DNA of 64,000 bases from an uncultured Faecalicatena sp. (GTDB taxonomy: Bacteria; Bacillota; Clostridia; Lachnospirales; Lachnospiraceae): assembly GCA_948468385.1 (NCBI GenBank), contig CAOKHZ010000018.1, forward strand, positions 24,551-88,550, written 5' to 3'. A program made the translations under genes and the position numbers. The notes under the pieces were generated by a model, which had not been told where the DNA came from, ran no database searches, and was given only the letters and a program-made list of their open reading frames with translations. This document shows, one piece after another, positions 47,995 to 63,191 of this stretch (its first letter is position 1; every line of letters starts with the position of its first letter).

Positions 47995-48354
47995 ATGGCA
48001 GACAGGGCGACGTTGCAGGGGAACGCGGCGATGTTGATATTGGGGCTTCTCGCCGGGCGTGACATGTATGGCTACGAGATGCTTGAAGAGTTGCGCCGGC
48101 GTTCACAGAATGTGTTCGAGATGAAGGCAGGAACATTGTATCCGCTACTGCATTCCTTGGAGGAGAAAGGATTCGTGACCGTCTACGAGGAAAAGGTGGG
48201 CGAGGGCGTACAGAAGGTGCGCAAGTATTACCACATTACGCGGGCGGGAAAAAGGGCGTTCGCACAAAAACATGCGGAGTGGGAAAATTACGCTCGGGCG
48301 GTGGCGGGCGTGGTTGGCGTGGGCGGCTATGTTTCAATAAGGGGGATTGTATGA
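47995..48354 (+). CDS. PadR-family transcriptional regulator
   Basis: A 119-residue PadR repressor of the short class. The winged helix is plain: 'LILGLLAGRDMYGYEMLEEL', 'FEMKAGTLYPLLHSLEEKGF', 'RKYYHITRAGKRAFA'. The ATG at 47995 follows GGGG by 9 bases. Its promoter carries two matching operators. The stop overlaps the start of the SEDS-type gene (ATGA), so regulator and target form one autoregulated operon. PadR proteins commonly respond to envelope stress or antimicrobials; the signal here is unknown. Confidence 0.9.
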   Translation: MADRATLQGNAAMLILGLLAGRDMYGYEMLEELRRRSQNVFEMKAGTLYPLLHSLEEKGFVTVYEEKVGEGVQKVRKYYHITRAGKRAFAQKHAEWENYARAVAGVVGVGGYVSIRGIV

Positions 48355-49739
48355 AGGCTGGAGAATATTTGGATCGTTTGACGGAGCAGATTCGTTATCA
48401 ACCGGCGCGCTACGCCGTGCGCGAGGAGGTTCGTGCCCACATTGAAGATCAGCGGGCGGCATATGAGGCGCGGGGGCTTGCGCCGGAGGAGGCGGAGGTC
48501 TTGGCCGTGCGGCAGATGGGCGACCCGGTCGAGGCGGGCGTGGAACTAGACCGAGTCCACCGTCCGAGGATGGCCTGGGGGATGTTTGTTCTGGCGGGCG
48601 TTTTGTGTGCCGTGTGGATGGTGTTGCCAAAGCTCTTGTCCGCGGGAAATACTTACGAGAACGTGCAGGAATTGCTGCCCCGAGGATTTTTTGCCGTTTT
48701 TTGCATGGGGGTCATGATGGCGGTATGTCATCTGGACTATAGCAGGATTGGGAGGCACGCGCATATAATCGCGTTGGCGGCGGGCATCTTGTGTCTTGTG
48801 GGAATTGTTTCGTTGTGGGCATCTTCGGGCATTTCGGGTGACATAAATGGGATGGGCGTTTGGCTTTCCGGCATGAGCGTGGGAAGGATTGACCTGCGTC
48901 TTTGCTTGTTGCTATACGTGCCGCTGTATGCGGCAATTCTTTACGGCTATCGAAACGGTGGTTATAAGGATGTGGGAACGAGCCTTTTGTGGCTGTTGCC
49001 GCCGTTTTGCATGGCGTTTTGCATGGCGGACGTGGCGACGGCGTTCTTGCTGCTTTTTTGTTGTGGAACCTTGTTCATGGTCGCGGTGTGCAAAAACTGG
49101 TATCAAGTGTCGAGAAAATTTGTGTTATGTGTTTCTTTTGTCGTGATGGCATCGGTGATTCTGTCCTTGGCCATGTACATTTTGCTTGCCGCGCCGGAGT
49201 ATCAGGTGAACCGGATACGAAACCTTATTGGCAGAGGGGAACCCTCCTATATGATACAGATGGCGCAGGAGGTCCTGGCGGGCAGCAGGTGGCTTGGCAA
49301 GGCAAACGGGCAGATTGTGGAAGAAATTTTGAGCGGGGAAAATCAGGGCTTGTGCATGGGAGACTTTATGCTCACGGAGCTTAGCGGCCACTATGGAATG
49401 ATTTTCGCGGCGGCACTGGTGGCGGTTCTCTTGTTTTTGCTGTCTTATCTTTTGTGGGCTTGCCTGCGGCAGAAAAATCAGCTGGGAATGTTGATGGGGC
49501 TGGGCTGTGCCTTGGTGCTCTTGGTGCAAACGGGGTGTTACGCCTTGCTTAACATGGGAATCGTGAATATGGGCGTCGTTTTCTTTTGTCCGTTTGTGAC
49601 GTATGGGCGCGGCGGGATGCTTCTGACATCCGTGCTACTGGGGATTTTGTTGAGCGTCTATCGGTATCAGAGCGTGTTGTCAAAAGACACGGCAGTGATA
49701 CGTTTGGGACGGATTCGTTTTACCGTCACATCAGAATAA
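48351..49739 (+). CDS. HAAS-like domain fused to a SEDS (FtsW/RodA-type) protein
   Basis: A 462-residue protein. Residues 1-70 resemble the HAAS/DUF1700 cytoplasmic adaptor that pairs with PadR regulators ('YLDRLTEQIRY', 'EEVRAHIEDQRAAYEARGL'). The rest, about ten helices, resembles the SEDS glycosyltransferases: 'GDFMLTELSGHYG' places Asp338 at the RodA catalytic Asp, and 'NMGIVNMGVVFFCPFVTYGR' (residues 401-420) is the FtsW/RodA/SpoVE signature with TYG for SYG. SEDS proteins polymerise peptidoglycan with a partner PBP; none is encoded nearby. Start overlaps padR. A stress-inducible wall polymerase is plausible. Confidence 0.82.
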   Translation: MKAGEYLDRLTEQIRYQPARYAVREEVRAHIEDQRAAYEARGLAPEEAEVLAVRQMGDPVEAGVELDRVHRPRMAWGMFVLAGVLCAVWMVLPKLLSAGNTYENVQELLPRGFFAVFCMGVMMAVCHLDYSRIGRHAHIIALAAGILCLVGIVSLWASSGISGDINGMGVWLSGMSVGRIDLRLCLLLYVPLYAAILYGYRNGGYKDVGTSLLWLLPPFCMAFCMADVATAFLLLFCCGTLFMVAVCKNWYQVSRKFVLCVSFVVMASVILSLAMYILLAAPEYQVNRIRNLIGRGEPSYMIQMAQEVLAGSRWLGKANGQIVEEILSGENQGLCMGDFMLTELSGHYGMIFAAALVAVLLFLLSYLLWACLRQKNQLGMLMGLGCALVLLVQTGCYALLNMGIVNMGVVFFCPFVTYGRGGMLLTSVLLGILLSVYRYQSVLSKDTAVIRLGRIRFTVTSE

Positions 49740-49822: not shown

Positions 49823-50536
49823 ATGTTGCGGATTGCGGTCGTGGACGACGAACGAGAGTTTCAGGGACAAATGAAGGAATATCTTTCGCGTTATGAAAGG
49901 GAGGAAAACGAGAGCGTTTCCGTGACGGTGTTTGCGGACGGGATGGATGTTACGGAAAAATATCAGGGGAACTGGGACATTATTTTCATGGACATCAAAA
50001 TGAAGCACATGGACGGCATGGAGGCGGCGCGCAAGATTCGCAGGTATGACCGGCGTGTGATCCTGATTTTTATTACAACCATGGGAAATTATGCAATCAA
50101 CGGGTATGAGGTGGAGGCCTTGGATTTTGTGGTGAAGCCGCTTTCCTACGAGCTGTTTCAATTGAAAATGCGAAAGGCCGTCAATGCGGTGAGAAAGCAG
50201 GCGGCGGGGCGGCACTTGATGCTGCCGGTGGAGGGGCACAGAGAAAGAGTTTCTACCGACGACATTTTGTATATCGAGGTGAAAAACCATAACTTGCATT
50301 ATGTGACGAGTGAGCGAACCTATGTGGCGCGGGGACGTCTGGGTGACGCGGCAAAGGACTTGGCAGAGGTTCATTTTATGCGTTGTAGCCAGTCATATTT
50401 GGTGAATTTAAAGCAAGTCGTCCGCGTGGAGAAGGAGCGGGTCTGGGTGGGAAATTGTCAGCTTGCCTTTAGCAGGACGTGGAAGAAGGATTTTTTGCAA
50501 GCACTATCGGATTATTTGGAAGCGGGATATTCATGA
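49823..50536 (+). CDS. LytTR response regulator (AgrA-like), system 1
   Basis: A 237-residue response regulator. The receiver domain has the acidic pocket D8-D9-E10 and phosphoacceptor Asp57 ('IIFMDIKM'), with Thr in 'IFITTMG' and Lys in 'FVVKPLS'. The C-terminal LytTR DNA-binding domain (about 130-237) shows 'LMLPVEGHRERVSTDDILYI' and 'MRCSQSYLVNLKQV'. A GGGGGTG stretch precedes the ATG. The kinase gene follows after 78 bases, then a permuted GH3 gene whose promoter region carries 21-bp-spaced repeats. Confidence 0.93.
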   Translation: MLRIAVVDDEREFQGQMKEYLSRYEREENESVSVTVFADGMDVTEKYQGNWDIIFMDIKMKHMDGMEAARKIRRYDRRVILIFITTMGNYAINGYEVEALDFVVKPLSYELFQLKMRKAVNAVRKQAAGRHLMLPVEGHRERVSTDDILYIEVKNHNLHYVTSERTYVARGRLGDAAKDLAEVHFMRCSQSYLVNLKQVVRVEKERVWVGNCQLAFSRTWKKDFLQALSDYLEAGYS

Positions 50537-50614
50537 TGTTGCGTGGGGAATGTCATGTTGATAGCAAGGAACGTGTGTATCAAGTTTGGGATGTCATGCT
50601 GGAGGGTGGAATTT

Positions 50615-51943
50615 ATGGGTCAGGTGACGACGTCCATATTGGAAATGGAGTTGGGGCTTTTGCCCTTTGTGTTGGAGCTTTTTTCGGCGGCGGTCGTTTA
50701 TGTATATTTGTTGAAGCGGAAAAGGCAGTTCTGGATCAGGATTTTGTTTGTCTGCCTGCTCGTGTCTCAAAGTCCGCTTTGCATGTTGATTTTCGTGCCG
50801 AAGGAAGAGACGCGCATGGAAACCGTGCTTTTCTTATATGCCTTGTTTTGCGTGGTTGTGTTCGTCGTGCTCATCTGGGGGATTTGGTTTTGTTTTGAGG
50901 TACGTCCACGGGAAGCACTGTACTGTGCGACTTGCGCGTATATTACGGAGCACGTTGTATATTGTTTGCGCATTTTGCTTAACATGCTGATGAAGACGAA
51001 CATCTGGGACGACGGAAGTATTTGGTATTTTCTTCTGCACGCGGCGATATATTTGCTGTCATACCACGTGGTGGCCAAAAAGATGGTGCAAAACTACCAT
51101 TATGAAACACGGGCCTTGCATTCGGTCGGGTTGATGGCACTTGCGCTTTTGATTGTATTTTTAATGAGCGTGGTCAGCCTCATGCATGGCTTAGGCTGGC
51201 TTCACGCCATTTACGCGTTGGTCTGTTGCACGTTCATGTTACTTAGCCAGCGCAATCAGGTCAATCAATTACGGATGCAAAGGGAATTGCATATGAAGGA
51301 GCAAATTTGGCGGCAAAACAAGACGCGGTACGAGATGTCGAAGGAGACGATTGAAATCATCAATCGCAAATGTCATGATTTGAAGCACCAGATTGAGGCC
51401 TTGAAGGGAATTGAAAATACTCAGAAGCAAAAAGACGTGGTTGCCGGTATAGAGGAATCCGTGATGATTTACGAGGCCATCAAAAATACGGGAAATCCAA
51501 TCCTCGACACGGTGCTGATGGAGAAAGGGCTTTTGTGCAAGGAAAATCATATTTGTCTGAATGTTATGGCGGACGGAAAGCTTCTCGACTTCATGGACGA
51601 GATTGATTTGTATACATTGTTTTGTAACGCCTTGGACAATGCCATCGAGGCCAATTTGCAGGTCGCGGGGACGCAGGAACGGTATGTCAATTTGCAGATT
51701 CGTAAAAAGGCGGGGTTGGTGCTGATACGTCTGGAAAATCCATATGTCGGCGAAGTAAGGATGTCGGACGGGCAGTTGCAAACGGTGAAGGCGAACAAGG
51801 ACGAGCATGGGTTTGGCAGTCGGAGTATTCGGCACACGGTGGAGGAATATGGAGGGCTGGTAAAAATTGAGACGGAAAATCAAATCTTCGTCCTGCGTAT
51901 CACGATACCATTGGAGGAGGCGCGTATCGACGAAACCGCCTGA
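50615..51943 (+). CDS. GHKL sensor histidine kinase (AgrC-like), system 1
   Basis: A 442-residue membrane kinase. Five to six helices fill the first 215 residues and probably sense a signal in or near the membrane. The phosphoacceptor His254 is in 'RKCHDLKHQIEAL', followed by the GHKL ATPase: N box 'CNALDNAIEAN' and G box 'GFGSRSIRHTVEEYGG'. GGAGGGTGGA just upstream favours this ATG over one at 50543. No AgrD-like peptide or AgrB gene is visible nearby, so the signal may be a carbohydrate or wall fragment rather than a peptide (inference). Confidence 0.9.
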   Translation: MGQVTTSILEMELGLLPFVLELFSAAVVYVYLLKRKRQFWIRILFVCLLVSQSPLCMLIFVPKEETRMETVLFLYALFCVVVFVVLIWGIWFCFEVRPREALYCATCAYITEHVVYCLRILLNMLMKTNIWDDGSIWYFLLHAAIYLLSYHVVAKKMVQNYHYETRALHSVGLMALALLIVFLMSVVSLMHGLGWLHAIYALVCCTFMLLSQRNQVNQLRMQRELHMKEQIWRQNKTRYEMSKETIEIINRKCHDLKHQIEALKGIENTQKQKDVVAGIEESVMIYEAIKNTGNPILDTVLMEKGLLCKENHICLNVMADGKLLDFMDEIDLYTLFCNALDNAIEANLQVAGTQERYVNLQIRKKAGLVLIRLENPYVGEVRMSDGQLQTVKANKDEHGFGSRSIRHTVEEYGGLVKIETENQIFVLRITIPLEEARIDETA

Positions 51944-51959
51944 TGTGGCCATTCGCGTT

Positions 51960-52024
51960 AATTGCGACACAAAAATGCCGAATTACGACAAAACCACATC
52001 ACAGCCATGGAAATTTGCTAAAAT
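51960..52024 (+). promoter_or_regulatory. Predicted LytTR-activated promoter of the first permuted GH3 gene
   Basis: Direct repeats AATTGCGACA (51960-51969) and AATTACGACA (51981-51990) are spaced 21 bp apart, the LytTR pattern. A -10 box TAAAAT (52019-52024) follows; the matching -35 position (around 51996) has no consensus, as expected for an activated promoter. The second repeat ends near -41. Confidence 0.5.
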
Positions 52025-52062
52025 CTTTTTATTAACAATTATGAAAGAAAGGGGAAATTTTC

Positions 52063-55000
52063 ATGGAAAAGAAAGCAAAAAAACAGCCCACGATGAAGGG
52101 GAAAATCATCAAGACCGTGATTTCCGCCATTCTCATCGTCGTGATGGTGGTGGCGATTGTCGCGGCCAATTCCGTGTTGACCGACAATAACCGGATGGTC
52201 AACAACATGATGGGCACCAGCGATTCCAAGCTGGACAACTCCAAGGCAAAGACGGACGGCCTGGATTTGGAGTACAACAAGTCGGATTATTCAAAGGACG
52301 AAATCGGGGCGGCCGAGGACGAGCTGGCACTTCGAATCGCCGCGGAGGGCGTGGTTCTTCTAAAAAACGAGAATGACGCGCTGCCGATGAATAAGGACAT
52401 CACGTTCAGCTTTTTCGGACGGAATTCAACGGCGGTCAAGACGAACATCGGCATGATGGGCATGATGGGCGTAGGCGTGGATATGAAGACGGCTTTTGAA
52501 GAGAAGGGGATGACCGTCAACGAGACATTGTGGGACTTCTATAACAGTGGAAAAGGCTCGTCATACGTGCTTGGCACGGGATCCGTGGCGTTTGGACAAG
52601 ACGAGGACTTTGGCATCAACGAGTGTCCGCTGTCCGTATTAAAGGAGGACGCTTCGGTACTTGAGAGCGCGCAAGGGACGACCCCTATTTTCGTGATGAA
52701 GCGCGTGGCCGGCGAGGGGCGCGACATGCCTCGTTCCATGTACAATCACACGGACGTGGCCGAGGACAAGACAAAGAGTTATTTGGAGCCGGATTCGGTG
52801 GAATTGGAAATTTTGCAGTATTTGAACGATAATTTCTCGAACATCATCCTGGTGGTGCAATCGAACGCGGCCATCGAGATGGGCTGGGTGGACGAGTTTC
52901 AAAACATCACGTCCGTGATTCTCGCGCCGGACGGATTGTCCGCGCTGCCAGGTATCCTGACCGGGGAAATCAACCCGTCGGGGCGCACGGTGGACACGTT
53001 CGCGAGGGACGTTTTAGCTTCCCCGGCGGCGCAGAACTTTGGTGATTATGCCTATTATAATGAAGACGGCACGGCGACGAAGTACAATTATGTCAGCTAC
53101 GCCGAGGGAATTTACGTTGGCTATAAATATTACGAGACTCGCTACGAGGACGTGGTTTTAGGCCAGGGAAACGCAGGGGATTATGATTATGGCACGGAAG
53201 TGGTTTATCCGTTTGGATATGGACTTTCTTATACGACGTTTGACTGGGGCGTGCCGGATGTTTCATGGAACGGCAAGGAGTGCAACGTGACCGTCGAGGT
53301 AACGAATACCGGAGACGTGTCGGGTAAGGACGTGGTGGAGATTTACGCGCAGAGCCCGTACACCGACTACGACAAGGAAAACGGTGTCGAGAAAGCGGCG
53401 GTACAGCTTGTGGGTTACGGCAAAACGGGTACTTTGGAGCCGGGCGCGAGCGAGAAGGTAACGGTGACGTTTGCTGAGGAACAGCTGAAGGCTTACGACG
53501 CGAATGGCGCGAAGACGTTCATACTTGACGCGGGCGAGTATTTTATCACGGCGGCAAAAAATGCACATGACGCGGTGAATAACGTACTGGCGGCAAAGGG
53601 AAAAACGACGGCGGACGGCATGACGGCGGAGGGAAATGCCGACATGGTGGTTTCCTACGTTCCGGACATCACGGAGACGGACGTAGAGACGTATTCCAAG
53701 GATAGTTACAGCGGCGCGGAGATTACCAACCAGTTTGATGACGCGAAGGGAGAGTTTACATACCTGACCAGAAGTGACTGGACGGGGACGTTTCCGCAGC
53801 ATGACGGCGAAGTGATGTCCGAGATTAGTACGTGGGGCAATGAAATCAACGGCACGGACGCAGATGGAAATCCGGCGGCCTACGTGTTTGGCAAGACGAT
53901 TGACAAGGAGGACTTGGCGAAGCTGGACGCATTTGAATCCGGCAGCCCGGTCGACCCGGAATCTTTTGACGACGAGATTGTTTATGGTAAGAGAAACGGC
54001 CTGACGCTCATCGAGATGCGCGGCCTTGACTTTGACGACCCGAAGTGGGACGACCTGCTTGACCAACTGACGGCGGAAGAATACTATGAAACAATTGGTA
54101 TTTCGGGATATGGTATTGCTTATATTGATTCCATCAACATGCCGTTCTGTATGGACGCGGATACGGCAAATGGATTGATTTATGGCGGAACGGGAAAATT
54201 TTATCCGAACTCCATGACATTGGCGCAGACGTGGAACCAGGAGCTGGCGCACGAGTACGGCGTGATGCTTGGCAACGAGGCGATTCTCGGCGGCACGGAC
54301 GGCTGGTATGCCCCGTCCATGAACATCCATAGGACGCCGTGTTCCGGGCGTAACGGCGAATATTTCTCCGAGGACGGATTCCTTTCCGGCGCGGTCGCCT
54401 CGAACGAGGTGCTAGGCATTGCCTCGAAGGGCGTGTACGCATATATCAAGCATTTTGCGTTTAACGATCAGGAAAACCATCGCGGAGACACCGAGGGGCA
54501 GTTCAGCATCGCGACTTGGCTGAACGAGCAGTCGGCGCGCGAGATTTATCTGTTGCCGTTCGAAATGTGCATGAAGGCCGGCGACGTGGAGCTGAATTAC
54601 CTGGAAGCGAAAGACGACGGAAGTTATGAGAACGCGACACGCGACATTCGCGCCTGCCAGGCGGTGATGACCGGATTTAACCGCATTGGTTACACCTGGA
54701 CCGGTGGTTCCTATAATCTGATTACCGGTATCGTGAGAAACGAGTGGGATTTCGACGGACTGATTATCACGGATAATGCCAACACCGGCGTGTTCATGGA
54801 CTGTTATCAGATGATTGAGTCCGGGGCGGATATCAAACTGACTTCCCAGCCGGAGTCGGCGAGGTTCGATTTCGACAAGGACAACAAGGCGCATTATCAT
54901 TACGCGCGTGAGGCGTTGCACCGTATGCTGTACACGATTGCCAATTCCAAGGCAATGTTGGGCGCGATGCCGGGCAGCGTGTTCGTGGACGACGCGACGA

Positions 55001-55110
55001 TGACCGACAAGGTGACGAGGGGCGTGAACATCGGTTGCGGTATTGGCATTGCGGTGCTGGTATTGCTGACGATTCTGCGGTTCATACCGAGGAAGAAAAA
55101 GGAAGATTAG
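52063..55110 (+). CDS. Circularly permuted, double-anchored GH3 hydrolase, system 1
   Basis: A 1015-residue GH3 enzyme with reversed domains. After an N-terminal helix (about 18-36) come the alpha/beta sandwich (about 85-345), the FnIII-like domain (about 415-525; 'PFGYGLSYTTF' marks its start) and only then the TIM barrel (about 650-960). The barrel has K796-H797 ('YIKHFAFNDQENHRG') and probable nucleophile Asp904 in 'DFDGLIITDNANTG'. A C-terminal helix (about 990-1007) and RKKKED end the protein. With Lys-rich ends inside, the catalytic part lies outside, held at both termini. AAAGGGG precedes the ATG. Reversed GH3 enzymes are known from rumen anaerobes; the double anchor is less familiar. 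Substrate unknown. Confidence 0.88.
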   Translation: MEKKAKKQPTMKGKIIKTVISAILIVVMVVAIVAANSVLTDNNRMVNNMMGTSDSKLDNSKAKTDGLDLEYNKSDYSKDEIGAAEDELALRIAAEGVVLLKNENDALPMNKDITFSFFGRNSTAVKTNIGMMGMMGVGVDMKTAFEEKGMTVNETLWDFYNSGKGSSYVLGTGSVAFGQDEDFGINECPLSVLKEDASVLESAQGTTPIFVMKRVAGEGRDMPRSMYNHTDVAEDKTKSYLEPDSVELEILQYLNDNFSNIILVVQSNAAIEMGWVDEFQNITSVILAPDGLSALPGILTGEINPSGRTVDTFARDVLASPAAQNFGDYAYYNEDGTATKYNYVSYAEGIYVGYKYYETRYEDVVLGQGNAGDYDYGTEVVYPFGYGLSYTTFDWGVPDVSWNGKECNVTVEVTNTGDVSGKDVVEIYAQSPYTDYDKENGVEKAAVQLVGYGKTGTLEPGASEKVTVTFAEEQLKAYDANGAKTFILDAGEYFITAAKNAHDAVNNVLAAKGKTTADGMTAEGNADMVVSYVPDITETDVETYSKDSYSGAEITNQFDDAKGEFTYLTRSDWTGTFPQHDGEVMSEISTWGNEINGTDADGNPAAYVFGKTIDKEDLAKLDAFESGSPVDPESFDDEIVYGKRNGLTLIEMRGLDFDDPKWDDLLDQLTAEEYYETIGISGYGIAYIDSINMPFCMDADTANGLIYGGTGKFYPNSMTLAQTWNQELAHEYGVMLGNEAILGGTDGWYAPSMNIHRTPCSGRNGEYFSEDGFLSGAVASNEVLGIASKGVYAYIKHFAFNDQENHRGDTEGQFSIATWLNEQSAREIYLLPFEMCMKAGDVELNYLEAKDDGSYENATRDIRACQAVMTGFNRIGYTWTGGSYNLITGIVRNEWDFDGLIITDNANTGVFMDCYQMIESGADIKLTSQPESARFDFDKDNKAHYHYAREALHRMLYTIANSKAMLGAMPGSVFVDDATMTDKVTRGVNIGCGIGIAVLVLLTILRFIPRKKKED

Positions 55111-55116
55111 GATTTG

Positions 55117-55140
55117 GGCGGGGAATTCCCCGCCTTTTTT
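55117..55140 (+). terminator. Terminator of the first permuted GH3 gene
   Basis: A perfect palindrome GGCGGGGAATTCCCCGCC (55117-55134) followed by TTTTTT. Confidence 0.9.
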
Positions 55141-55260
55141 GTGTCATAGGAAACTTCGTTCCCTATGACACAAAACCCTCCGGGGGGATGCGCACTTTGC
55201 GCATAAAGAAAATGGCTGCTGGCGCAGCCGCGCTCCGGCGCGCGAGTCCGGCAAGCCAGA
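55141..55260. repeat. GC-rich structured intergenic element
   Basis: It starts with a hairpin (GTGTCATAGG...CCTATGACAC, 55141-55172) and continues with small palindromes (GCGCACTTTGCGC; GCCGCGCTCCGGCGCGC). It resembles intergenic repeats of Lachnospiraceae genomes (from memory). It ends where the TetR gene is cut short. Confidence 0.4.
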
Positions 55261-55269
55261 CTCTTTGTT

Positions 55270-55668
55270 CTATTGCGACAAGGGGCTTTGCCGGAAAATT
55301 TCTACGATTTGTTCATTACATTTTTTGGTTGCCCTGGCAAGGTAGCGCGCCCCAAAGTCATCCAAGGTCATAAGGACGCGTAAGTTTTTATCGTTGTACA
55401 TCATGAGGCAGATTTCTTTCAGCATCTGTTCAAAGTCGCGCCCGGGCGCGGTTTCCTGAATGGTTTTTATTGCCATTTTTTCGTAATATGTGATGATTTC
55501 CTCAAGAATGTCCGCCGTATTTTCGTAATGTGAGTAAAACGTGTTTCTATTTATGCCGGCTTTTTTGCATAACCGTGAAACGGCAATGCTGTATAACGGT
55601 TGTTTCTCCATGAGTTCAATCAGGGCGGTATGAAGTTTTTCCTTTGTTTTTTCTACACGTTTATCCAT
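55270..55668 (-). pseudogene. TetR-family regulator, C-terminally truncated
   Basis: A 132-residue frame with a complete TetR DNA-binding region ('LHTALIELMEKQPLYSIAVS', 'CKKAGINRNTFYSHYEN') but only part of the ligand-binding domain. Typical members are about 180-195 residues. The frame ends 'FRQSPLSQ' at the edge of the GC-rich element, suggesting that an insertion or deletion removed the end. AGGAAAA precedes the ATG. It is divergent from a broken SDR gene, probably its former target. DNA binding may persist. Confidence 0.6.
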
Positions 55669-55725
55669 TTGTTTTCCTATTATTCCATCAAGATATCGAA
55701 CACTTTGCTGAATAGTTGCGGTTTA

Positions 55726-55750
55726 ATTATAAGCCGTGGTAGTTTATAAT
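55726..55750. promoter_or_regulatory. Candidate TetR operator / SDR promoter
   Basis: An inverted repeat ATTATAA-N11-TTATAAT (55726-55750) lies between the divergent TetR and SDR genes; TATAAT in its right arm (55745-55750) can serve as the -10 of the SDR promoter. Confidence 0.45.
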
Positions 55751-55781
55751 GCAAGCATGAATCATCGAAGGAGGAATGGAC

Positions 55782-56217
55782 ATGAAAATAGGTAGCGTGG
55801 TTGTTACGGGGGGCGTATCTGGTGTCCAAGTACGGCGTGGAGGGAATTACGAATGTCCTTCGTTATGAAATGGCTCCCTTTGGTATTCAGGCGACGAGCA
55901 TTGAACCGGCGGGAATGAAGACACCCATGACGGCGGACGCGGATGCCAGGACGAAGAAAACCTGGGAGGCGATGGAGCCGCAGGTGAGAGATGCTTATTA
56001 TGACAAGATTAATCCGACGCTTGAATTTATGAACAGCGTCATTGACACGGCGGAAAAGCCGGAAAACGTGGCGAAAGTGATTTTGAAAGCGTTAAACGAC
56101 AAGAAAATGAAGATTCGCTACATGGCGAAATCCGTGGCATGGCAGGCGGGGGTTCAGCGATTGCGGGGAGAAAACGCGTTTGAAAGCATGATGATGAAAG
56201 GGATGAAATTGAAGTAA
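55782..56217 (+). pseudogene. Short-chain dehydrogenase with internal deletion
   Basis: The N-terminus 'MKIGSVVVTGGVSGV' (from 55782) is the SDR nucleotide-binding start. It then jumps, with a frame change near 55815, to the catalytic region 'VSKYGVEGITNVLRYEMAPF' and the SDR C-terminal half. About 130 residues, including the NAG motif and catalytic Ser, are missing. GGAGGA lies before the ATG. The rest of the gene is well preserved, so the loss is recent. Confidence 0.7.
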
Positions 56218-56236
56218 TTCGTAAGCAATTTTTTGG

Positions 56237-56265
56237 TTGTAATAGTTGTCCGATGAAGATATAAT
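56237..56265 (+). promoter_or_regulatory. Promoter of the AAA-like/PD-(D/E)XK gene
   Basis: TTGTAA (56237-56242), 17 bases, TATAAT (56260-56265). The block GATGAAGATATAATAGAAA is repeated in front of the decayed copy at 63302. Confidence 0.6.
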
Positions 56266-56305
56266 AGAAAGCGGACAAGGTGGAATGATTTGCGAGGTGA
56301 AGGTC

Positions 56306-57988
56306 ATGGCAAGGACGATCGGGATCGGCATACAAGATTTTGAAAAATTGCGGACGAGGAATTATTTTTACGTGGATAAGACATCCTTTATCAAGGAGTG
56401 GTGGGATGGCGGGGACGACGTGACGTTGCTGACCCGTCCGCGGCGGTTTGGAAAGACGCTGACGCTTGACATGGTGGAGAAGTTTTTTTCCGTCAAGTAT
56501 GCGGACAAGGGTGACTTGTTTGAAAATCTGGCCATTTGGAACGAGGAAAAATACCGCGAGTTACAAGGGATGTACCCGGTGATTTTTTTGAGTTTTGCGG
56601 ACGTGAAGGATACATGCTTTTCTGACACGCGGGAGAGGATTTGTCAGCTCATCACGGACGTGTACAACCAGTATGATTTTTTGCTTAAAGGGGAACTGTT
56701 GAATGAAAATGAGAAATCCCAGTTTCGAAGCGTGTCCGTCGGCATGAATACACCTTTGGCCACAAGTTCTTTAAAGGCGTTGTCCAATTACCTGGCACGT
56801 TATTATGGTAAAAGGGTGATCATTTTATTGGACGAGTATGACACGCCCATGCAGGAGGCTTATGTAAATGGATATTGGGATGAGTTGGCTTCTTTCACGA
56901 GAAGCTTGTTTAATTCCACGTTCAAAACGAATCCTTATCTGGAAAGGGCCTTGATGACGGGGATTACGAGGGTCAGCCGGGAATCGATTTTTTCGGACTT
57001 TAACAATCCGGTGGTGGTGACCACGACTTCGGAACGATATGAAGATTCTTTTGGCTTTACGCAGGAAGAAGTCTGGAAGGTATTGAAAGAGTACGATTTG
57101 TATGCGGAACGGGAGGATGTAAGGGCATGGTATGACGGGTTCACGTTTGGCAGGAAGCGGGACATTTACAACCCATGGTCCATCCTGAACTACTTGAAGG
57201 AACGAAGGTTTGCTTCGTATTGGGCGAACACGAGCGGCAACAGTCTGGTAGGGAAGCTGATTCGTGAGGGGAGCGTGGACGTAAAGGTCGCCATGGAGGA
57301 CTTGCTGGCAGGCAAGGCGCTTCATACGAAGATAGACGAACAGATTGTGTACGGCCAATTAAATGGTAGCGAGAACGCCATCTGGAGCTTGCTTTTGGCA
57401 AGCGGTTATTTGCGCGTGGAATCGAGCGAGTTAAAGGAGGGGGAGCGGGAATATGATTTGAAGCTCACCAATAGGGAAGTCGTCATCATGTTTAAGAAAA
57501 TGATAGGCGGTTGGTTTGAGGCATCCACGTCGGCGTACAACACCTTTATTAAGGCGCTGCTTCTGGGGGACGTGGAGGCCATGAATGACTACATGAACCA
57601 GGTCGTTTCCACGACGTTTAGCTATTTCGACACGGGAGCCGGGGCTTTCGAGGCGACGAAATCAGAAAAGTTTTATCATGGTTTCGTGCTGGGAATGATG
57701 GTGGATTTGGCCAATCGGTATAGGATTACCTCGAACCGGGAAAGTGGGTTTGGACGGTATGACGTGATGCTCGAGCCAAGAAATGAGGATGACAACGCCA
57801 TCATTATTGAGTTCAAGGTCTGTAAGGCGGCGAAGGGACAGATGCTGGAAGAAACGGTGGCGGAAGCGTTAAAGCAGATTGAGGAAAAGAACTACGCGGC
57901 GAGTCTGGAGGAGGCCGGATTTAGGGCTGAGCGGATTAAGAAATATGGGTTCGCGTTTGCGGGAAAGAACGTGCTGATCGGGGAATGA
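56306..57988 (+). CDS. AAA-ATPase-like protein with PD-(D/E)XK nuclease domain
   Basis: A 560-residue protein of the common AAA-ATPase_like (PF09820-type) plus PDDEXK_9 architecture. The N-terminal part has 'GIQDFEKLRTRNYFYVDKTS' and the degenerate P-loop 'RPRRFGKTLTLDMV', then Walker-B-like 'VIILLDEYDTP'. The C-terminal nuclease-like part has 'GFGRYDVMLEP' and 'AIIIEFKV' (Asp and E-x-K). Multi-copy in many Clostridia and Bacteroidetes; function unproven, possibly mobile or defence related. GAGGTGA 6 bases before 56306 favours this ATG over 56285. A decayed paralog lies at 63391. Confidence 0.85.
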   Translation: MARTIGIGIQDFEKLRTRNYFYVDKTSFIKEWWDGGDDVTLLTRPRRFGKTLTLDMVEKFFSVKYADKGDLFENLAIWNEEKYRELQGMYPVIFLSFADVKDTCFSDTRERICQLITDVYNQYDFLLKGELLNENEKSQFRSVSVGMNTPLATSSLKALSNYLARYYGKRVIILLDEYDTPMQEAYVNGYWDELASFTRSLFNSTFKTNPYLERALMTGITRVSRESIFSDFNNPVVVTTTSERYEDSFGFTQEEVWKVLKEYDLYAEREDVRAWYDGFTFGRKRDIYNPWSILNYLKERRFASYWANTSGNSLVGKLIREGSVDVKVAMEDLLAGKALHTKIDEQIVYGQLNGSENAIWSLLLASGYLRVESSELKEGEREYDLKLTNREVVIMFKKMIGGWFEASTSAYNTFIKALLLGDVEAMNDYMNQVVSTTFSYFDTGAGAFEATKSEKFYHGFVLGMMVDLANRYRITSNRESGFGRYDVMLEPRNEDDNAIIIEFKVCKAAKGQMLEETVAEALKQIEEKNYAASLEEAGFRAERIKKYGFAFAGKNVLIGE

Positions 57989-58010
57989 GAAAGGGGTAAA
58001 GCAGGGAGGC

Positions 58011-58034
58011 GAGGCGGCCATATAAGGCCGCCTC
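58011..58034. terminator. Bidirectional terminator
   Basis: GAGGCGGCC (58011-58019) pairs perfectly with GGCCGCCTC (58026-58034), loop ATATAA, followed by GTTTAC. It separates the convergent nuclease-like and kinase genes. Confidence 0.7.
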
Positions 58035-58036
58035 GT

Positions 58037-59392
58037 TTACATGTTCTCCTCTGGAATCGGCAGCAGTAGCTGCAGTGAAAACCAGTTATTTTTCTGGTGC
58101 AAAGTCATCGTGCCATTGTATTTTTCAACAGTTTGCTTGATGCTTTTCAATCCATATCCGTGCATTGCCTTTTCCGCCTTGGTGGTGGCGGGCAGGGCAT
58201 TTTTTAATTCCAGCGGATTCTCGCTATAATTTTCAAATTGTATCATTACAAAATAATCTTGCCGGTACACGTTAAGGAGCAGGATTCGCTTCTCAGGTTC
58301 GGCATATTGCTCCACGCATTCAATCGCGTTGTCCAAGGCGTCGCCAAAAATGGAGCAGATATCCTTTTTGTTCATGAAATCAAGCAGGGCGCCGTTGACC
58401 ATGCAGTTGAAGGTGATGTTTTCGCGCAGGCACTGGTGCTTTTTCGTGGTGAGAATCACGTCGAGGATATGGTTCCCGGTCTCCATCTGTGCCTCGTGAA
58501 GTTCGATTCCTTTCAGCATTTCCGAAAAATATTGATGAAACACGTCCGGGTCGGATTCGGACTGCATGGCGAGGAGGTAGTGCTTTAAGTCGTGCAGTTC
58601 CTTTTTTAAGAAATCCATATTGTCCCGTTCTAATTTATACTGTTCGTATTGACGTTGAAACAAGCCGGCCAAGGCCTGAGATTCCCCACGGATGCGGTAT
58701 TCCTCGCGTCGGTCCTGCTGCACGAACAAGATGGAGAGTGCGCATAGATCCAGTAAAAAGCGTATGGTAAAAGTGAACTGCGCGAAATCCGGGTTGTAGG
58801 TCAACGTGAAGAGGGAAGGATTGCTCAGAAAAAAGGCACTAAGGGCGAGAATCAGGGAACTGACCGCGTCCTTCGCGTCCACCGTCAGGATTTTTTCTTG
58901 TGGGAAATGCTTGCGTTCCAGCAAAAAATAGCCGATTAACAAGGGCAGGTAGGCAAGTGACATTAGAATCCAGGAGGTGGACGTTCGATAGTGCTTGGCA
59001 AGGGCGAACCACCCATAATGTAAAAGGCGCGAAAAGGAACTGATGGTTTCGGCCACCATGATGGCTCTCGCGCAACAATAGAGGGCGTCAAAAAAAGAGG
59101 CCTTGCACAAGGCGAAAATGACAAGGAACATGCTTAGGAATGCCGCCATCATGGTGAAAAACCAGCCGAAGGAGTAGGTGAGCAGGTTGGTAAGCGTATC
59201 GGTAAGCTGATAGGAAAAGCGCGCCTGATACCATAACAAGAAAAAGAAAAAGGCGCAAAACAACGCGGCGGTCTTTCCCTTGGAAAAACGACGTTTTAAT
59301 AGAAGGACGAACAAAAGGCAGGCCAGGCCTTCGGCGATGGCGGTGTGTACGCGGGGCGTGATTAAGATTTGATATAAAATTTCCTGCGACAT
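58037..59392 (-). CDS. GHKL sensor histidine kinase (AgrC-like), system 2
   Basis: A 451-residue kinase with about six membrane helices (first 225 residues). The phosphoacceptor is His267 in 'KKELHDLKHYLLAM'. The ATPase domain has 'GDALDNAIECV' and 'GYGLKSIKQTVEKYNG'. Its start codon overlaps the stop of the response regulator gene (TAATG). It shares architecture with system 1 but the sequences are clearly diverged, so signals may differ. No autoinducer gene is seen. Confidence 0.9.
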   Translation of the reverse strand: MSQEILYQILITPRVHTAIAEGLACLLFVLLLKRRFSKGKTAALFCAFFFFLLWYQARFSYQLTDTLTNLLTYSFGWFFTMMAAFLSMFLVIFALCKASFFDALYCCARAIMVAETISSFSRLLHYGWFALAKHYRTSTSWILMSLAYLPLLIGYFLLERKHFPQEKILTVDAKDAVSSLILALSAFFLSNPSLFTLTYNPDFAQFTFTIRFLLDLCALSILFVQQDRREEYRIRGESQALAGLFQRQYEQYKLERDNMDFLKKELHDLKHYLLAMQSESDPDVFHQYFSEMLKGIELHEAQMETGNHILDVILTTKKHQCLRENITFNCMVNGALLDFMNKKDICSIFGDALDNAIECVEQYAEPEKRILLLNVYRQDYFVMIQFENYSENPLELKNALPATTKAEKAMHGYGLKSIKQTVEKYNGTMTLHQKNNWFSLQLLLPIPEENM

Positions 59393-60108
59393 TAGCGGAT
59401 TCCTCCTATGTGGTTTGTAAGTGCTGCCAGAAACGTCTGCCGGTAAGTCCGGCTGACGGGCAGTGTCTGGCGGTTGGACAACAAGATGTCGTTATGCTTT
59501 AAGCAAATCACGTGTGCCAGGTTCACGAAATAGGAATTGTGGCATTTGGAAAAACCATGAGTTTCGTATTGCGTGATATATTTTTTAAATGGCCCCGCCG
59601 TGCGGTGGATGCCGGATTCCGTGTGAATCAGTACCGCGTGCAACTGGCTCTCAAAGTAGAGGATGCGGTCCAGCCCGATGCGGACGGCTCCGGCGGAAGT
59701 GTTTGCCACGAGATCGTCGCTGTGACTTTTGCCGCTTGCGAGCTTGCGCAGGGCTTTTTGCATCAACTGGGAAAACGCCAGGTAGGAAACCGGCTTCAAC
59801 ACGTAACCCAGGGCGTCCACAAGGTAGCCTTGCACCGCGTACTGTGAAGTGGAGGTGATGAAAATGATGATGACGTTTTCGTCCAGTTCGCGGATTTGGG
59901 CGGCGGTCTTCATGCCGTCCAACCCCGGCATCTGGATGTCAAGTAAGAGGATGTCGAAAGCGGCACGATAATCGTCGGCAAGATCCTGCCCGTCATGATA
60001 TGTCCGGATATCAAAATTTTCCGAAAATTTAGTCGAAAACGCTTGTAAATATTTCTGGAGGACTTTCATGTCTCCCTGGTGGTCTTCCACGATGGCGATA
60101 CGCGTCAT
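59392..60108 (-). CDS. LytTR response regulator (AgrA-like), system 2
   Basis: A 238-residue regulator with receiver residues E8-D9, phosphoacceptor Asp57 ('ILLLDIQMPG'), Thr in 'FITSTSQ' and Lys in 'YVLKPVS'. The LytTR domain covers about 135-238 ('GAVRIGLDRILYFESQ', 'FSKCHNSYFVNLAHV'). AGGGGG precedes the ATG. Transcribed divergently from the second permuted GH3 gene, with predicted binding repeats between them. Confidence 0.92.
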   Translation of the reverse strand: MTRIAIVEDHQGDMKVLQKYLQAFSTKFSENFDIRTYHDGQDLADDYRAAFDILLLDIQMPGLDGMKTAAQIRELDENVIIIFITSTSQYAVQGYLVDALGYVLKPVSYLAFSQLMQKALRKLASGKSHSDDLVANTSAGAVRIGLDRILYFESQLHAVLIHTESGIHRTAGPFKKYITQYETHGFSKCHNSYFVNLAHVICLKHNDILLSNRQTLPVSRTYRQTFLAALTNHIGGIR

Positions 60109-60131
60109 GACGATACCCCCTTTTTGCTTTT

Positions 60132-60161
60132 AGTATAAAAGAAAGGGGGATTCATTGTCAA
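60132..60161 (-). promoter_or_regulatory. Promoter of two-component system 2
   Basis: On the minus strand, TTGACA (60156-60161), 18 bases, TATACT (60132-60137), just upstream of the response regulator ATG. Confidence 0.6.
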
Positions 60162-60227
60162 CGAAAGATTAATATTTTAGGCTCATGCCGGTCACTCGTG
60201 CCGGATGCACGTAAGTCTGGTCAATGT

Positions 60228-60293
60228 CAGTTGTGCGTCGTTTGGCGTTAGTTGTGCAGATGAGAGAAAAAAGCTTGGAATTTGTGGTAGAGT
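60228..60293 (+). promoter_or_regulatory. Predicted LytTR-activated promoter of the second permuted GH3 gene
   Basis: Direct repeats CAGTTGTGC (60228-60236) and TAGTTGTGC (60249-60257) have a 21-bp period and contain the GTT core of LytTR boxes. A weak -10, TAGAGT (60288-60293), follows at nearly the same distance as in system 1, with no -35 consensus. Confidence 0.5.
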
Positions 60294-60329
60294 ACGTGTA
60301 CGGTATAAAAAAGAAGGGAGAAATGAGGT

Positions 60330-63191
60330 ATGTTAACAGTAAGTATTGATGATGTGATGGGGGTTTTGAAGCTGTGCGTCCCCTATCTCGCGGGATGTGG
60401 GATTGCCATCGTGCTGGCGGTCGTCGTTTGTATTGCCTGCATGAAAATGAAGCGGCCGACAAAGTTTTTGGTGAGGAATCAGGCGGGAATAGCCGCGCTT
60501 TTGGCCGTGGTCGTCGTGGCGAATTTGATTTGCACGGGGCCGATGTCGAGCCTATTGTCGCTCTTAAGCGGCGAGGGCGTGATTTCCGAGGAGTCCAGCA
60601 AGGAGGCCATGGAACTGTGTCAGGACATTGCGGAGGAAGGAATCGTGCTTCTGGAAAATGAGGAGGGCGTGCTCCCGCTCGATGAAGGGGGCAAGTTAAA
60701 CGTCTTTGGCTGGGCTTCCATCGACCCGTGCTACGGAGGCACCGGATCGGGTGCCATTTCCGACAAGGCGGAGAAGGTAAGCTTGTTGAAGGGATTGAAG
60801 GATGCCGGCATCGAGACAAACGGCGAACTGTCAAAGTTTTATAAAGACTATTTGCCGCAGAGGCCGGTGCTGGGGTACGGAAATTGTAATTGGACGTTGC
60901 CGGAACCGCCGGCGGAAAATTATTCGGACGAGCTGCTTGCGCAGGCAAAAGAATATTCGGACAAGGCCATGATCGTCATTACCCGTCTGGGCGGGGAGCA
61001 TGCGGATTTGCCGGTGGACATGACGGTCGTGCAGTATGAAAATAATTCCGACAAGTACGAGGACTTTCCGGCCGGGACGCATTACCTGGAGCTGAGCCAG
61101 TCGGAAAAGGACATGGTAAAACTGGTCTGCGAAAATTTCGAGGACGTGATTGTCGTTTATAACGGCGCGAACACGCTGGAACTGGGATTTTGTAAGGAGT
61201 ATGAGCAAATCAAGGGCGTCATCTGGTGCCCGCCCGTGGGGCAGAACGGATTTCGGGCGCTGGGCGAGATTGTCAGCGGGAAGGTGAACCCGTCGGGGCA
61301 TGCCGTGGACACGTTCGTTTATGACCTGACCGCGACGCCGTATTATAACAACATCGGTGAGTTTGAATACACCAACGTGGAAGAATTCGGGTTCGAGGCG
61401 AACGGATATTTTACGGAGGGCATCACGAGGCCACATTTCGTGAATTATGTGGAAAATATCTATGTGGGATATCGTTTTTATGAGACGGCCGCCGAGGAAG
61501 GGCTGATTACATACGACGAGGTCGTGCAATACCCGTTTGGACAAGGGTTGTCATACACGACCTTCACGCAGAAAATAGAGGACATTGCCGTGGACGGGGC
61601 GGGAAACGTCACGGCCAGGGTCAAGGTGGAAAATAGCGGGAACGCGGCCGGCAAGGAGGTCGTGCAAGTATATTATAATCCGCCGTATACGGACGGCGGT
61701 ATTGAAAAGGCGTCCGCCAACCTGGTGGCATTTGACAAGACAAAGGAGCTGGAGCCGGGTGAGTCGCAGACGCTGGAACTTCATTTTGCAAAGGAGGACA
61801 TGGCATCCTATGACACGGCGCAGGGGGGCGGCTATGTCTTGGAGGAGGGTGAATACCGGGTTTCGGTTCGAGCCAATTCCCATGACATTTTAGACGAGAA
61901 GAACGTCTTGATTGAGGAAGAAGTCCGCTATGACGGGGAAAATCCGCGAAGCACGGATGAGACGGCGGCCGTCAACCAGTTTGATTTTGCCGAAGGAGAT
62001 GTCACGTATCTTTCCCGGGCAAACCATTTTGCAAATTATGAGGAGGCGGTGGCCGCGCCCGAGGACTATCTGATGAGCGACGAGGCGAAAGCGGGATTTT
62101 ATAACTCCCATAATTACAATCCAGAAGATTTTAACGATCCGGACGAGGAAATGCCGGTCACCGGTGCGAAAAACGGGCTCAAATTGGCGGATTTGCGAGG
62201 GGCGGACTATGACGACGAGCGGTGGGAGGCATTGCTTGACCAGATGACGGTCGAGGAAATGGACAACCTGATTGCCCTGGGCGGATATCAGACGTTGGAG
62301 GTGAAGAGTATCGAGAAGCCGGTCACCATCGACTGTGACGGCCCCGCTTCCATCAACAACATGTTCGCGGGCCTTAGTTCCATCGGATTTCCGGCGGAGG
62401 TGGTTATCGCGTCCACGTTCAATCTGGATTTGGCGCAGGAGTTTGGCCGAAGCATCGGGCGCATGGCCGACGAGATGAACGTGTCTGGCTGGTACGCGCC
62501 GGCCATGGACATGCACCGTTCGGCGTTCGACGGCAGGAATTTTGAATATTATTCCGAGGACGGGCTTTTGTCCGGGCTGATGGGCGCGATGTCGGTGGCG
62601 GGAGCGAAGGAGTACGGAATTTATGCATATGTCAAACATTTCGCCCTCAACGACCAGCAGGTGAGCCAGGAGGAAATGCTTTGTACGTGGTCCACGGAGC
62701 AGGCGATTCGGGAAATTTACCTGAAGCCGTTCGAGTTGTGCGTCAAGGTGGGTGAAAACAACGCCATGATGTCCTCGTGGAATTATATCGGCAACGTGTG
62801 GACGGGAGGATGCGAGGAGCTGCTTACGAACGTTTTGCGGGACGAGTGGGGATTTGAAGGAATGGTCATTTCAGACGGGTTCCATCATACGGGCTATATG
62901 AATTCCGACCAGGCAATCCGCGCGGGCGGCGACATCATGCTGAAGAATTTTGACGTGGAGACGAACCATGTAAAAGACCAGGAAAGTGCCACGGGAATCC
63001 GAGCCATGAGAAATGCCTGCCACAACATTCTTTACACGGTGGCGAACAGCCGGGCGTGCGATGCAAAACGCACGACGGGATGGGCGACGTGGAAGGTGGT
63101 ATTGACGATTGCCGACGCGGCGGCGGTAGTGCTTGTCATCCTCTGGGAGGTGCTGGCCGCCAGGGGATATCGAAAGAGACAAGGAAAGTAA
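60330..63191 (+). CDS. Circularly permuted, membrane-anchored GH3 hydrolase, system 2
   Basis: A 953-residue GH3 enzyme with the same reversed order: two N-terminal helices (about 12-38 and 50-72), sandwich (about 90-330), FnIII-like domain ('PFGQGLSYTTF' near residue 405), TIM barrel (about 600-905) and a C-terminal helix (about 923-943) with a basic tail. The barrel carries K769-H770 ('YVKHFALNDQQ') and probable nucleophile Asp849 in 'GFEGMVISDGFHH'. The extra N-terminal helix puts the N-terminus outside and the catalytic part outside. AAGGGAG lies 9 bases before the ATG. It is a diverged paralog of the system 1 enzyme; substrate unknown. Confidence 0.88.
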   Translation: MLTVSIDDVMGVLKLCVPYLAGCGIAIVLAVVVCIACMKMKRPTKFLVRNQAGIAALLAVVVVANLICTGPMSSLLSLLSGEGVISEESSKEAMELCQDIAEEGIVLLENEEGVLPLDEGGKLNVFGWASIDPCYGGTGSGAISDKAEKVSLLKGLKDAGIETNGELSKFYKDYLPQRPVLGYGNCNWTLPEPPAENYSDELLAQAKEYSDKAMIVITRLGGEHADLPVDMTVVQYENNSDKYEDFPAGTHYLELSQSEKDMVKLVCENFEDVIVVYNGANTLELGFCKEYEQIKGVIWCPPVGQNGFRALGEIVSGKVNPSGHAVDTFVYDLTATPYYNNIGEFEYTNVEEFGFEANGYFTEGITRPHFVNYVENIYVGYRFYETAAEEGLITYDEVVQYPFGQGLSYTTFTQKIEDIAVDGAGNVTARVKVENSGNAAGKEVVQVYYNPPYTDGGIEKASANLVAFDKTKELEPGESQTLELHFAKEDMASYDTAQGGGYVLEEGEYRVSVRANSHDILDEKNVLIEEEVRYDGENPRSTDETAAVNQFDFAEGDVTYLSRANHFANYEEAVAAPEDYLMSDEAKAGFYNSHNYNPEDFNDPDEEMPVTGAKNGLKLADLRGADYDDERWEALLDQMTVEEMDNLIALGGYQTLEVKSIEKPVTIDCDGPASINNMFAGLSSIGFPAEVVIASTFNLDLAQEFGRSIGRMADEMNVSGWYAPAMDMHRSAFDGRNFEYYSEDGLLSGLMGAMSVAGAKEYGIYAYVKHFALNDQQVSQEEMLCTWSTEQAIREIYLKPFELCVKVGENNAMMSSWNYIGNVWTGGCEELLTNVLRDEWGFEGMVISDGFHHTGYMNSDQAIRAGGDIMLKNFDVETNHVKDQESATGIRAMRNACHNILYTVANSRACDAKRTTGWATWKVVLTIADAAAVVLVILWEVLAARGYRKRQGK

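What the first reader, a model, noticed from the sequence alone, without database searches (positions are those of the whole stretch)
49823..63191. Two LytTR two-component systems, each paired with a permuted, membrane-anchored GH3 enzyme
System 1 (49823-51943) precedes the GH3 gene at 52063; system 2 (58037-60108) is divergent from the GH3 gene at 60330. The same three-part set (AgrA-like regulator, AgrC-like kinase, reversed-domain GH3 with helices at both ends) occurs twice but with diverged sequences and different gene order. LytTR systems usually control peptides, toxins or competence rather than glycosidases. This looks like a duplicated surface module that senses something and displays an exo-glycosidase, perhaps acting on exopolysaccharide, wall glycans or host glycans.
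Basis: partly seen in the sequence, partly recalled or inferred. Interest (0 to 1): 0.8.

Follow-up and report, generated by a model that had tools for sequence, protein, structure and literature searches.

The report
Sensor-controlled membrane-anchored sugar-cutting enzymes
This bacterium carries about a dozen small gene kits in which a two-gene sensor sits beside, and probably switches on, its own sugar-cutting enzyme tethered to the outer face of the cell membrane; similar kits occur in two bacterial phyla, and a 2010 genome paper already hinted at them.

Summary
Both three-gene sets are present at the stated coordinates; both GH3 proteins are domain-permuted with membrane helices at both ends. 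They are two of many. In this genome 12 of 17 membrane-anchored permuted GH3 genes lie within 7 kb of a LytTR gene (1.4 expected), against 0 of 8 soluble permuted and 2 of 13 canonical GH3s. In other genomes 25 of 41 permuted GH3s with enough flank do, in Bacillota and Actinomycetota. The two window sets are ancient paralogues, not a recent duplication.

New here: part of the linked GH3 promoters carry LytTR-type operators, two ~10-bp direct repeats 21 bp apart with a -10 hexamer about 30 bp downstream; words differ between modules, and the GH3-2 operator has no second copy in the genome. Each regulator most likely activates its neighbouring GH3 directly. Catalytic residues are intact in 17 of 17. 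Signal and substrate are unknown. Kelly et al. 2010 (PMC2914790) had already noted LytTR-GH3 proximity at three Butyrivibrio loci. Rated a new variant of a known kind.

The parts
49823..50536 (+). RR1, LytTR response regulator
   Evidence: ORF; Response_reg + LytTR
50543..51943 (+). HK1, polytopic GHKL sensor kinase
   Evidence: ORF; PF14501; six hydrophobic segments; H-box His invariant in 19 of 19 aligned kinases
51959..51969 (+). GH3-1 operator, upstream half-site TAATTGCGACA
   Evidence: direct repeat at offset 21, 9 of 11 matches; letters rechecked
51980..51990 (+). GH3-1 operator, downstream half-site GAATTACGACA
52019..52024 (+). candidate -10 hexamer TAAAAT of the GH3-1 promoter (proposed)
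   Evidence: position after the second half-site as in other linked promoters
52063..55110 (+). GH3-1, permuted GH3 with a membrane helix at each end
58037..59392 (-). HK2, polytopic GHKL sensor kinase
   Evidence: PF14501; model with six long helices plus the start of a seventh before the kinase core
59392..60108 (-). RR2, LytTR response regulator
60226..60236 (+). GH3-2 operator, upstream half-site GTCAGTTGTGC
   Evidence: direct repeat at offset 21, 10 of 11 matches; no second copy in the genome at up to 3 mismatches; letters rechecked
60247..60257 (+). GH3-2 operator, downstream half-site GTTAGTTGTGC
60288..60293 (+). candidate -10 hexamer TAGAGT of the GH3-2 promoter (proposed)
60330..63191 (+). 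GH3-2, permuted GH3 with two N-terminal and one C-terminal membrane helix
   Evidence: model

Best explanation
Each set is a regulatory module of its own. The polytopic GHKL kinase senses a small signal in or at the membrane and phosphorylates its LytTR regulator. The regulator binds two direct half-sites about two DNA turns apart, just upstream of the GH3 (or GH3 operon) promoter, and switches that GH3 on. The GH3 is held in the membrane by helices at both ends, so its catalytic core lies outside the cell at the membrane surface, where it most likely removes a terminal sugar from glycosides that reach the cell before uptake. Supported by computation: gene sets, linkage, topology, catalytic residues, operator-like repeats in part of the promoters. 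Inferred: phosphorelay, activation, and exo-glycosidase action on incoming glycosides. Unknown: signal and sugar. Confidence is about 0.8 for direct regulation of the GH3 and lower for the proposed role.
For: Linkage 12 of 17 against 0 of 8 soluble permuted and 2 of 13 canonical GH3s in the own genome, and 25 of 41 in outside loci with at least 5 kb on both sides. Direct repeats at offset 21 placed 80-140 bp before 10 of 48 linked GH3s, other offsets mean 0.48 and at most 3. A -10 hexamer 28-34 nt after the repeat in 9 of 10 strict cases, against 6 of 34 linked promoters without a repeat. This matches published LytTR geometry (PMC6193735 passages). Operator words kept in part of the GH3-2 homologues and scored in 16 of 49 other linked promoters against 5-7 at wrong spacings. 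Repeats before the first gene of multi-gene modules. H-box His in 19 of 19 kinases. Acid/base Glu, nucleophile Asp and substrate-binding Arg/Lys/His unchanged in 17 of 17 own enzymes. GPH/MFS_2 transporters with GH2 or GH78 near 10 loci, 4 of them own.
Against: Only a minority of linked promoters show a clear repeat (10 of 48 strict). Offset 21 is also the commonest offset before other genes (14 of 284). At the stricter matrix cut-off the contrast is weak (8 of 49 against 1-5 at wrong spacings). The three own multi-gene modules show no repeat directly before the GH3 itself (z 0.59). 5 of 17 own TM-GH3s have no LytTR within 7 kb, nor do 16 of 41 outside ones. The window modules have no transporter among the ORFs examined, so uptake is not shown. 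No expression data.
Confidence: 0.6

Rival explanations
1. The membrane GH3 acts on the cell's own envelope glycans (teichoic-acid, capsule or lipid-linked sugars), and the kinase monitors envelope state rather than food.
For: Anchoring at both ends keeps the enzyme at the membrane surface under the wall. In 20 outside loci a GtrA-like gene is nearby, in 10 a GT2-cluster gene (one of them, L148, looks like a spurious frame) and in 4 UDP-galactopyranose mutase, in both phyla.
Against: None of these three clusters occurs near the own-genome TM-GH3s compared; of the three GtrA genes of this genome one lies about 7 kb beyond the C8 GH3 and none lies in the window. Other modules carry GPH/MFS_2 transporters with GH2 or GH78.
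Confidence: 0.22
2. The doubly anchored GH3 is the extracellular sensing partner of the kinase: ligand binding or turnover is passed to the kinase through the membrane helices, and the system regulates its own receptor.
For: The kinases have no extracellular domain. The only AgrB of the genome lies elsewhere. The GH3-2 operator has no second copy, so the GH3 may be the sole target. In 39 outside sets GH3 and kinase sensor-region distances correlate (Mantel r 0.40; partial r 0.25 with RR held constant).
Against: No correlation among the 12 own paralogues (r -0.04, P 0.58). The outside correlation is confounded with species descent. Intact catalytic residues fit an enzyme without a sensing role. 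Some TM-GH3s have no linked kinase.
Confidence: 0.13
3. The neighbourhood is chance: both gene families are numerous in Lachnospiraceae and simply land near each other, and the repeats are background.
For: Both families are numerous, and repeats at offset 21 have a background excess before other genes.
Against: 12 observed against 1.4 expected in this genome. In 16 outside genomes LytTR counts predict 0.5 linked within 7 kb and 12 are, although I chose these 16 knowing that 13 had a LytTR in the locus. Demequina has a single LytTR, 7.1 kb from its TM-GH3.
Confidence: 0.03

Closest known systems
LytTR-GH3 proximity in Butyrivibrio proteoclasticus B316 (Kelly et al. 2010, PMC2914790; passages read)
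   Different: The passages give no domain permutation, N-terminal anchor, operators, or spread beyond that genome; three copies against twelve linked here.
Permuted GH3 subfamily: GlyA1 (PMC5104943, PDB 5k6l-o), P. barengoltzii 5wug, BrGH3A (PMC11233000) (passages read)
   Same: Order (alpha/beta)6 sandwich - FnIII - (beta/alpha)8 barrel; acid/base Glu and nucleophile Asp; best fold matches of the GH3-2 model (TM-score 0.67-0.69 by query).
   Different: No membrane helices are described in the passages seen ('transmembrane' 0 occurrences in both texts); BrGH3A is proposed to be intracellular. The TM-anchored proteins form a group apart from 7 of the 8 soluble permuted GH3s of this genome.
AgrA/AgrC-type LytTR two-component systems (PMC4227749, passages)
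   Same: Receiver-LytTR regulator, GHKL kinase with polytopic sensor, dimeric site of direct repeats upstream of the promoter.
   Different: No AgrB at the GH3-linked sets; the apparent target is a glycosidase.
LytTR regulatory systems, LRS (PMC6193735, passages)
   Same: Direct repeats about 21 bp apart, a few bases upstream of -35.
   Different: In LRS a membrane inhibitor partners a LytTR regulator; here the regulators have a receiver domain and a kinase partner.
Gram-positive polysaccharide utilization loci of the Roseburia/E. rectale group (PMC5320581, passages)
   Same: Glycosidase genes with local regulators; one listed locus (Ros-7) has RR[LytTR] and HK.
   Different: No transporter was seen at the window modules; Ros-7 lists no GH3.

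Membership tests
LytTR/GHKL two-component system | Regulator with receiver and LytTR domains | tested here: met
   both regulators
LytTR/GHKL two-component system | GHKL kinase with H-box His and polytopic sensor | tested here: met
   PF14501, His invariant in 19 of 19, helices
LytTR/GHKL two-component system | Direct-repeat operator, period about 21, upstream of -35 | tested here: met
   met in sequence for both window GH3 promoters and 10 of 48 linked promoters; binding not tested
LytTR/GHKL two-component system | Phosphotransfer from kinase to regulator | not testable with these tools
   needs biochemistry
agr quorum-sensing system | AgrB protease at the locus | tested here: not met
   one AgrB in the genome, at C22, not near these sets
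Permuted GH3 (GlyA1 type) | Domain order C-Fn3-N | tested here: met
   fold matches
Permuted GH3 (GlyA1 type) | Catalytic Glu and Asp present | tested here: met
   E223 and D849 unchanged in 17 of 17 own and 35 of 35 aligned sequences
Permuted GH3 (GlyA1 type) | Glycosidase activity | not testable with these tools
   no assay
LRS | LytTR regulator paired with an inhibitory membrane protein instead of a kinase | tested here: not met
   receiver domains and GHKL kinases are present
Gram-positive PUL | Glycosidase plus transporter plus regulator in one locus | tested here: not met
   no transporter among the window ORFs examined around the two sets; own modules C9b, C11a and C11b do have MFS_2-type genes

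The most novel reading that the evidence does not exclude
The doubly anchored GH3 is both the only target and the extracellular sensor of its own two-component system: an enzyme-receptor that reports substrate or product to a kinase without a sensor domain, giving a one-enzyme feedback circuit with a private operator, held as a dozen insulated channels in one genome.
Probability: 0.13. Interest if true: 0.85.

Novelty: new variant of a known kind. Interest (0 to 1): 0.55.

Why it matters
It gives a large branch of GH3 enzymes a likely regulator, a place in the cell and a promoter signature, and provides operator words for predicting targets of orphan LytTR regulators. It offers a natural set of about a dozen parallel signalling channels in one cell in which regulator-operator specificity can be tested. 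It extends a one-sentence remark on three Butyrivibrio loci to a module found in two phyla.

Tried and rejected
Recent tandem duplication: rejected; GH3-1 and GH3-2 are 33% identical and lie in different deep branches. Chance neighbourhood: rejected. agr-type peptide circuit: no AgrB at the modules. Degenerate, binding-only GH3: rejected as a general rule, catalytic residues are unchanged. Kinase-GH3 co-evolution in the 12 own paralogues: Mantel r -0.04, P 0.58; in 39 outside sets r 0.40 but confounded with descent. Scan with a recalled AgrA/LytTR consensus: 1 of 17 upstream regions below P 0.05, probably because words differ between modules; replaced by a period test. Autoregulation: no repeat enrichment before outside regulator genes (z 0.38) and 2 of 48 overall. 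Viral-contig scan: nothing. tRNA and Rfam scans of the window: nothing. The GH3-1 degenerate pattern is too loose at 3 mismatches (151 hits, reversed control 32); at 0-1 mismatch it finds GH3-1 itself, the C14 GH3 promoter and one place at C10 that I did not examine; the C6 GH3 promoter is among the 3-mismatch hits.

Literature: LytTR with 'glycoside hydrolase family 3' 0 papers, with 'glycosyl hydrolase family 3' 0, with GH3 6 papers (term passages read in PMC5320581, PMC10222030, PMC2914790 and PMC5945754; the other 2 seen in the listing only), with beta-glucosidase 10 (listing and abstract starts only), GtrA + glycoside hydrolase + UDP-galactopyranose mutase + GH3 0. The library holds open-licence PMC papers only. 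Of every paper cited I saw term passages, not the whole text.
Full report
What is there. The six genes are present at the stated places. RR1/HK1/GH3-1 run in one direction; HK2/RR2 run away from GH3-2. Pfam shows receiver plus LytTR in both regulators, a GHKL ATPase in both kinases, and the order GH3 C-domain, Fn3-like, GH3 N-domain in both enzymes. Hydropathy places one helix at each end of GH3-1, and two N-terminal plus one C-terminal in GH3-2. The AlphaFold model of GH3-2 is confident (pLDDT 91.0, pTM 0.90) and has three terminal helices; its nearest solved folds are the permuted enzymes GlyA1 (5k6l-o) and 5wug. The HK2 model (pLDDT 83.9, pTM 0.59) has six long helices plus the start of a seventh before the kinase core, and no extracellular domain; its Foldseek matches are kinase cores, among them S. 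aureus AgrC, with low whole-chain TM-scores.

How common it is in this genome. The genome has 38 GH3 C-domains, 24 LytTR and 25 GHKL domains. Sorted by domain order and terminal helices the 38 are 17 TM-anchored permuted, 8 soluble permuted and 13 canonical. C37, with one weak internal hydrophobic stretch, was counted as soluble. C17 and C28 show only the C-terminal helix with the start codon chosen; C17 gains a hydrophobic N-terminus with an earlier start, C28 does not clearly. Within 7 kb of a LytTR domain are 12 of 17, 0 of 8 and 2 of 13; within 2 kb 8, 0 and 1. Random placement predicts 1.4 of 17 within 7 kb, binomial P 4e-10; Fisher for 12/17 against 2/21 gives P 1.4e-4. The 12 use 12 different LytTR genes of 24, and each has a GHKL gene too.

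Other genomes. 79 of the 80 loci hold 91 permuted GH3s; 46 of 91 have a LytTR within 10 kb, many of the rest being cut by contig ends. Of the 41 with at least 5 kb on both sides, 25 have one within 7 kb. The scan was blind to LytTR, but it ranks by similarity to GH3-2, which is linked. The 39 linked outside loci fall in Clostridia (24), Actinomycetes (5), Coriobacteriia (4), Bacilli (2), Erysipelotrichia (2) and unnamed (2). For 16 of the genomes, LytTR counts predict 0.5 linked within 7 kb and 12 are; I chose the 16 knowing that 13 had a LytTR in the locus, so the less biased figure is 25 of 41.

Family tree. In a 115-row FastTree the TM-anchored permuted GH3s lie together, and 7 of the 8 soluble permuted ones of this genome form a separate, fully supported group; the eighth branches at the base of the TM group, and four rows scored soluble lie inside it, all from outside loci. 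The label needs at least six changes on the tree, so I do not claim a strict single origin. Linkage is scattered over the whole TM group, and GH3-1 and GH3-2 lie far apart, so the arrangement is old and the window pair is not a fresh duplication.

Operators. Upstream of the nine closely linked own GH3s, direct repeats at an offset of exactly 21 bp stand out against 48 other offsets (z 3.8); they do not before the three own GH3s of multi-gene modules (z 0.59) or four unlinked ones (z -0.6). Outside, offset 21 also leads before 27 close GH3s (z 2.9) and before 44 permuted GH3s in loci without a LytTR (z 3.3), but not before 39 regulator genes (z 0.38). Over 98 de-duplicated permuted GH3s, repeats of 9/11 or better at offset 21 starting 80-140 bp before the gene occur in 10 of 48 linked and 3 of 50 unlinked GH3s, 14 of 284 other genes and 2 of 48 regulator genes; other offsets in the linked set average 0.48, at most 3. 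Linked against other genes P 7e-4, against unlinked P 0.03. Offset 21 is also the commonest before other genes, so part of this is background; the linked set is about four times above it. Start codons are mostly first in-frame starts, so positions are approximate.

In the 10 strict cases a TAnnnT -10 hexamer lies 28-34 nt after the second half-site in 9, with none 35-62 nt away (3 have one at 14-20, 1 at 21-27); with a looser repeat cut-off it is 11 of 17. Of 34 linked promoters without a repeat, 6 have such a hexamer at the equivalent place and 7 in the next seven bases. The arrangement equals published LytTR sites: 9-bp repeats mostly 12 bp apart, 4-11 bp upstream of -35 (PMC6193735, passages).

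The words differ between modules. GH3-1: AATTGCGACA/AATTACGACA; GH3-2: CAGTTGTGC/TAGTTGTGC. C17 has five TTTACGAAAA-like half-sites spaced 21, 21, 20 and 21 bp before its operon, C11b has AACCACTTGGG/AACCACTTAGG before its GH2-transporter-GH3 run, and Anaerobium has CAGATTATGCG/CAGGTTGTGCC before a GH43 gene; nine other upstream regions tried gave weaker or no repeats at this offset, and L142 GT2 gave one. Nine promoters of GH3-2 homologues in the same genus and family were read: CAG/CAA-TTTATGC-like repeats 20-21 bp apart are clear in L195, L196, L199 and L202 (L202 by eye), weak in L194, L197 and L201, not seen in L198 and L200. A matrix from these words finds pairs of at least 8 bits in 16 of 49 other linked promoters against 5-7 at wrong spacings, in 8 of 51 unlinked ones against 0-5, and in 38 of 618 other genes against 26-39; at 10 bits the linked figures are 8 against 1-5. 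16/49 against 38/618 gives P 2e-7. The GH3-2 operator has one match in the genome with up to three mismatches, itself; the reversed control has 2. So its regulon may be a single gene, if RR2 tolerates no more than that.

Enzyme. The acid/base Glu (E223 of GH3-2, aligned with TnBgl3B; its role there is recalled; GlyA1 uses Glu143), nucleophile Asp849, Arg736, Lys769-His770 and Glu743-Asp744 are the same in all 17 own sequences. The Asp of DGP (position 670) is Asn in 4 of 17, which may mean more than one sugar specificity; that is inference.

Function. Two recurring neighbourhoods point two ways. One has a GPH/MFS_2 transporter (10 loci, 4 own), at some loci with GH2 or GH78, as for uptake of glycosides. 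The other has a GtrA-like protein (20 loci, none own), a GT2 (10 loci, one of them, L148, probably a false frame) and UDP-galactopyranose mutase (4), often with a canonical GH3 next door, as for envelope glycans. I saw neither at the window modules. I prefer trimming of incoming glycosides at the membrane, at modest confidence.

Prior knowledge. Kelly et al. 2010 state for B. proteoclasticus that three LytTR regulators are each close to a secreted GH3 with a C-terminal TM helix (PMC2914790; passages). I found no other mention in the searches listed under Tried and rejected.

Noticed in passing
L113, L115, L117, L136, L142, L156, L158, L176, L182: A second conserved neighbourhood: TM-GH3 with a canonical GH3, a GtrA-like gene, a GT2 and sometimes UDP-galactopyranose mutase and a GH43, in Clostridia, Bacilli and Actinomycetes. 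Looks like an envelope-glycan cluster; function not worked out.
   Followed up: partly
L124:9792-9823 (Pauljensenia hongkongensis): A clear operator-like repeat (GGCAGATTGTG / TACAGATTGTG, offset 21) before a TM-GH3 in a genome with no LytTR match at E 0.001. Which protein would read it is unexplained.
   Followed up: no
L085:9873-9965 (own genome C17, between a small lipoprotein-like gene and the regulator): Five TTTACGAAAA-like half-sites in one row, spaced 21, 21, 20 and 21 bp, more than the two needed for one dimer.
   Followed up: partly
L085, L087, L089 and L091:6275-9277 GH3 proteins: The Asp of the DGP motif is Asn in these 4 of 17 TM-GH3s, perhaps another sugar specificity.
   Followed up: no
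window 56246-57988 and 63635-63916: An AAA-ATPase_like/PDDEXK_9 gene lies between the two sets, and a PDDEXK_9 fragment follows GH3-2; a similar gene lies near a TM-GH3 in L126 (by eye).
   Followed up: no
window 47986-49739: A PadR-like regulator and an FtsW/RodA-like membrane protein lie just upstream of RR1.
   Followed up: no
own genome C9:13302-21830 (L084): A LytTR/GHKL pair lies between two canonical, soluble GH3 genes: possibly the same kind of circuit with a cytosolic enzyme.
   Followed up: no
own genome C22:51284-53192: The only AgrB of the genome, beside a GHKL and a LytTR: a probable true agr-type system.
   Followed up: no
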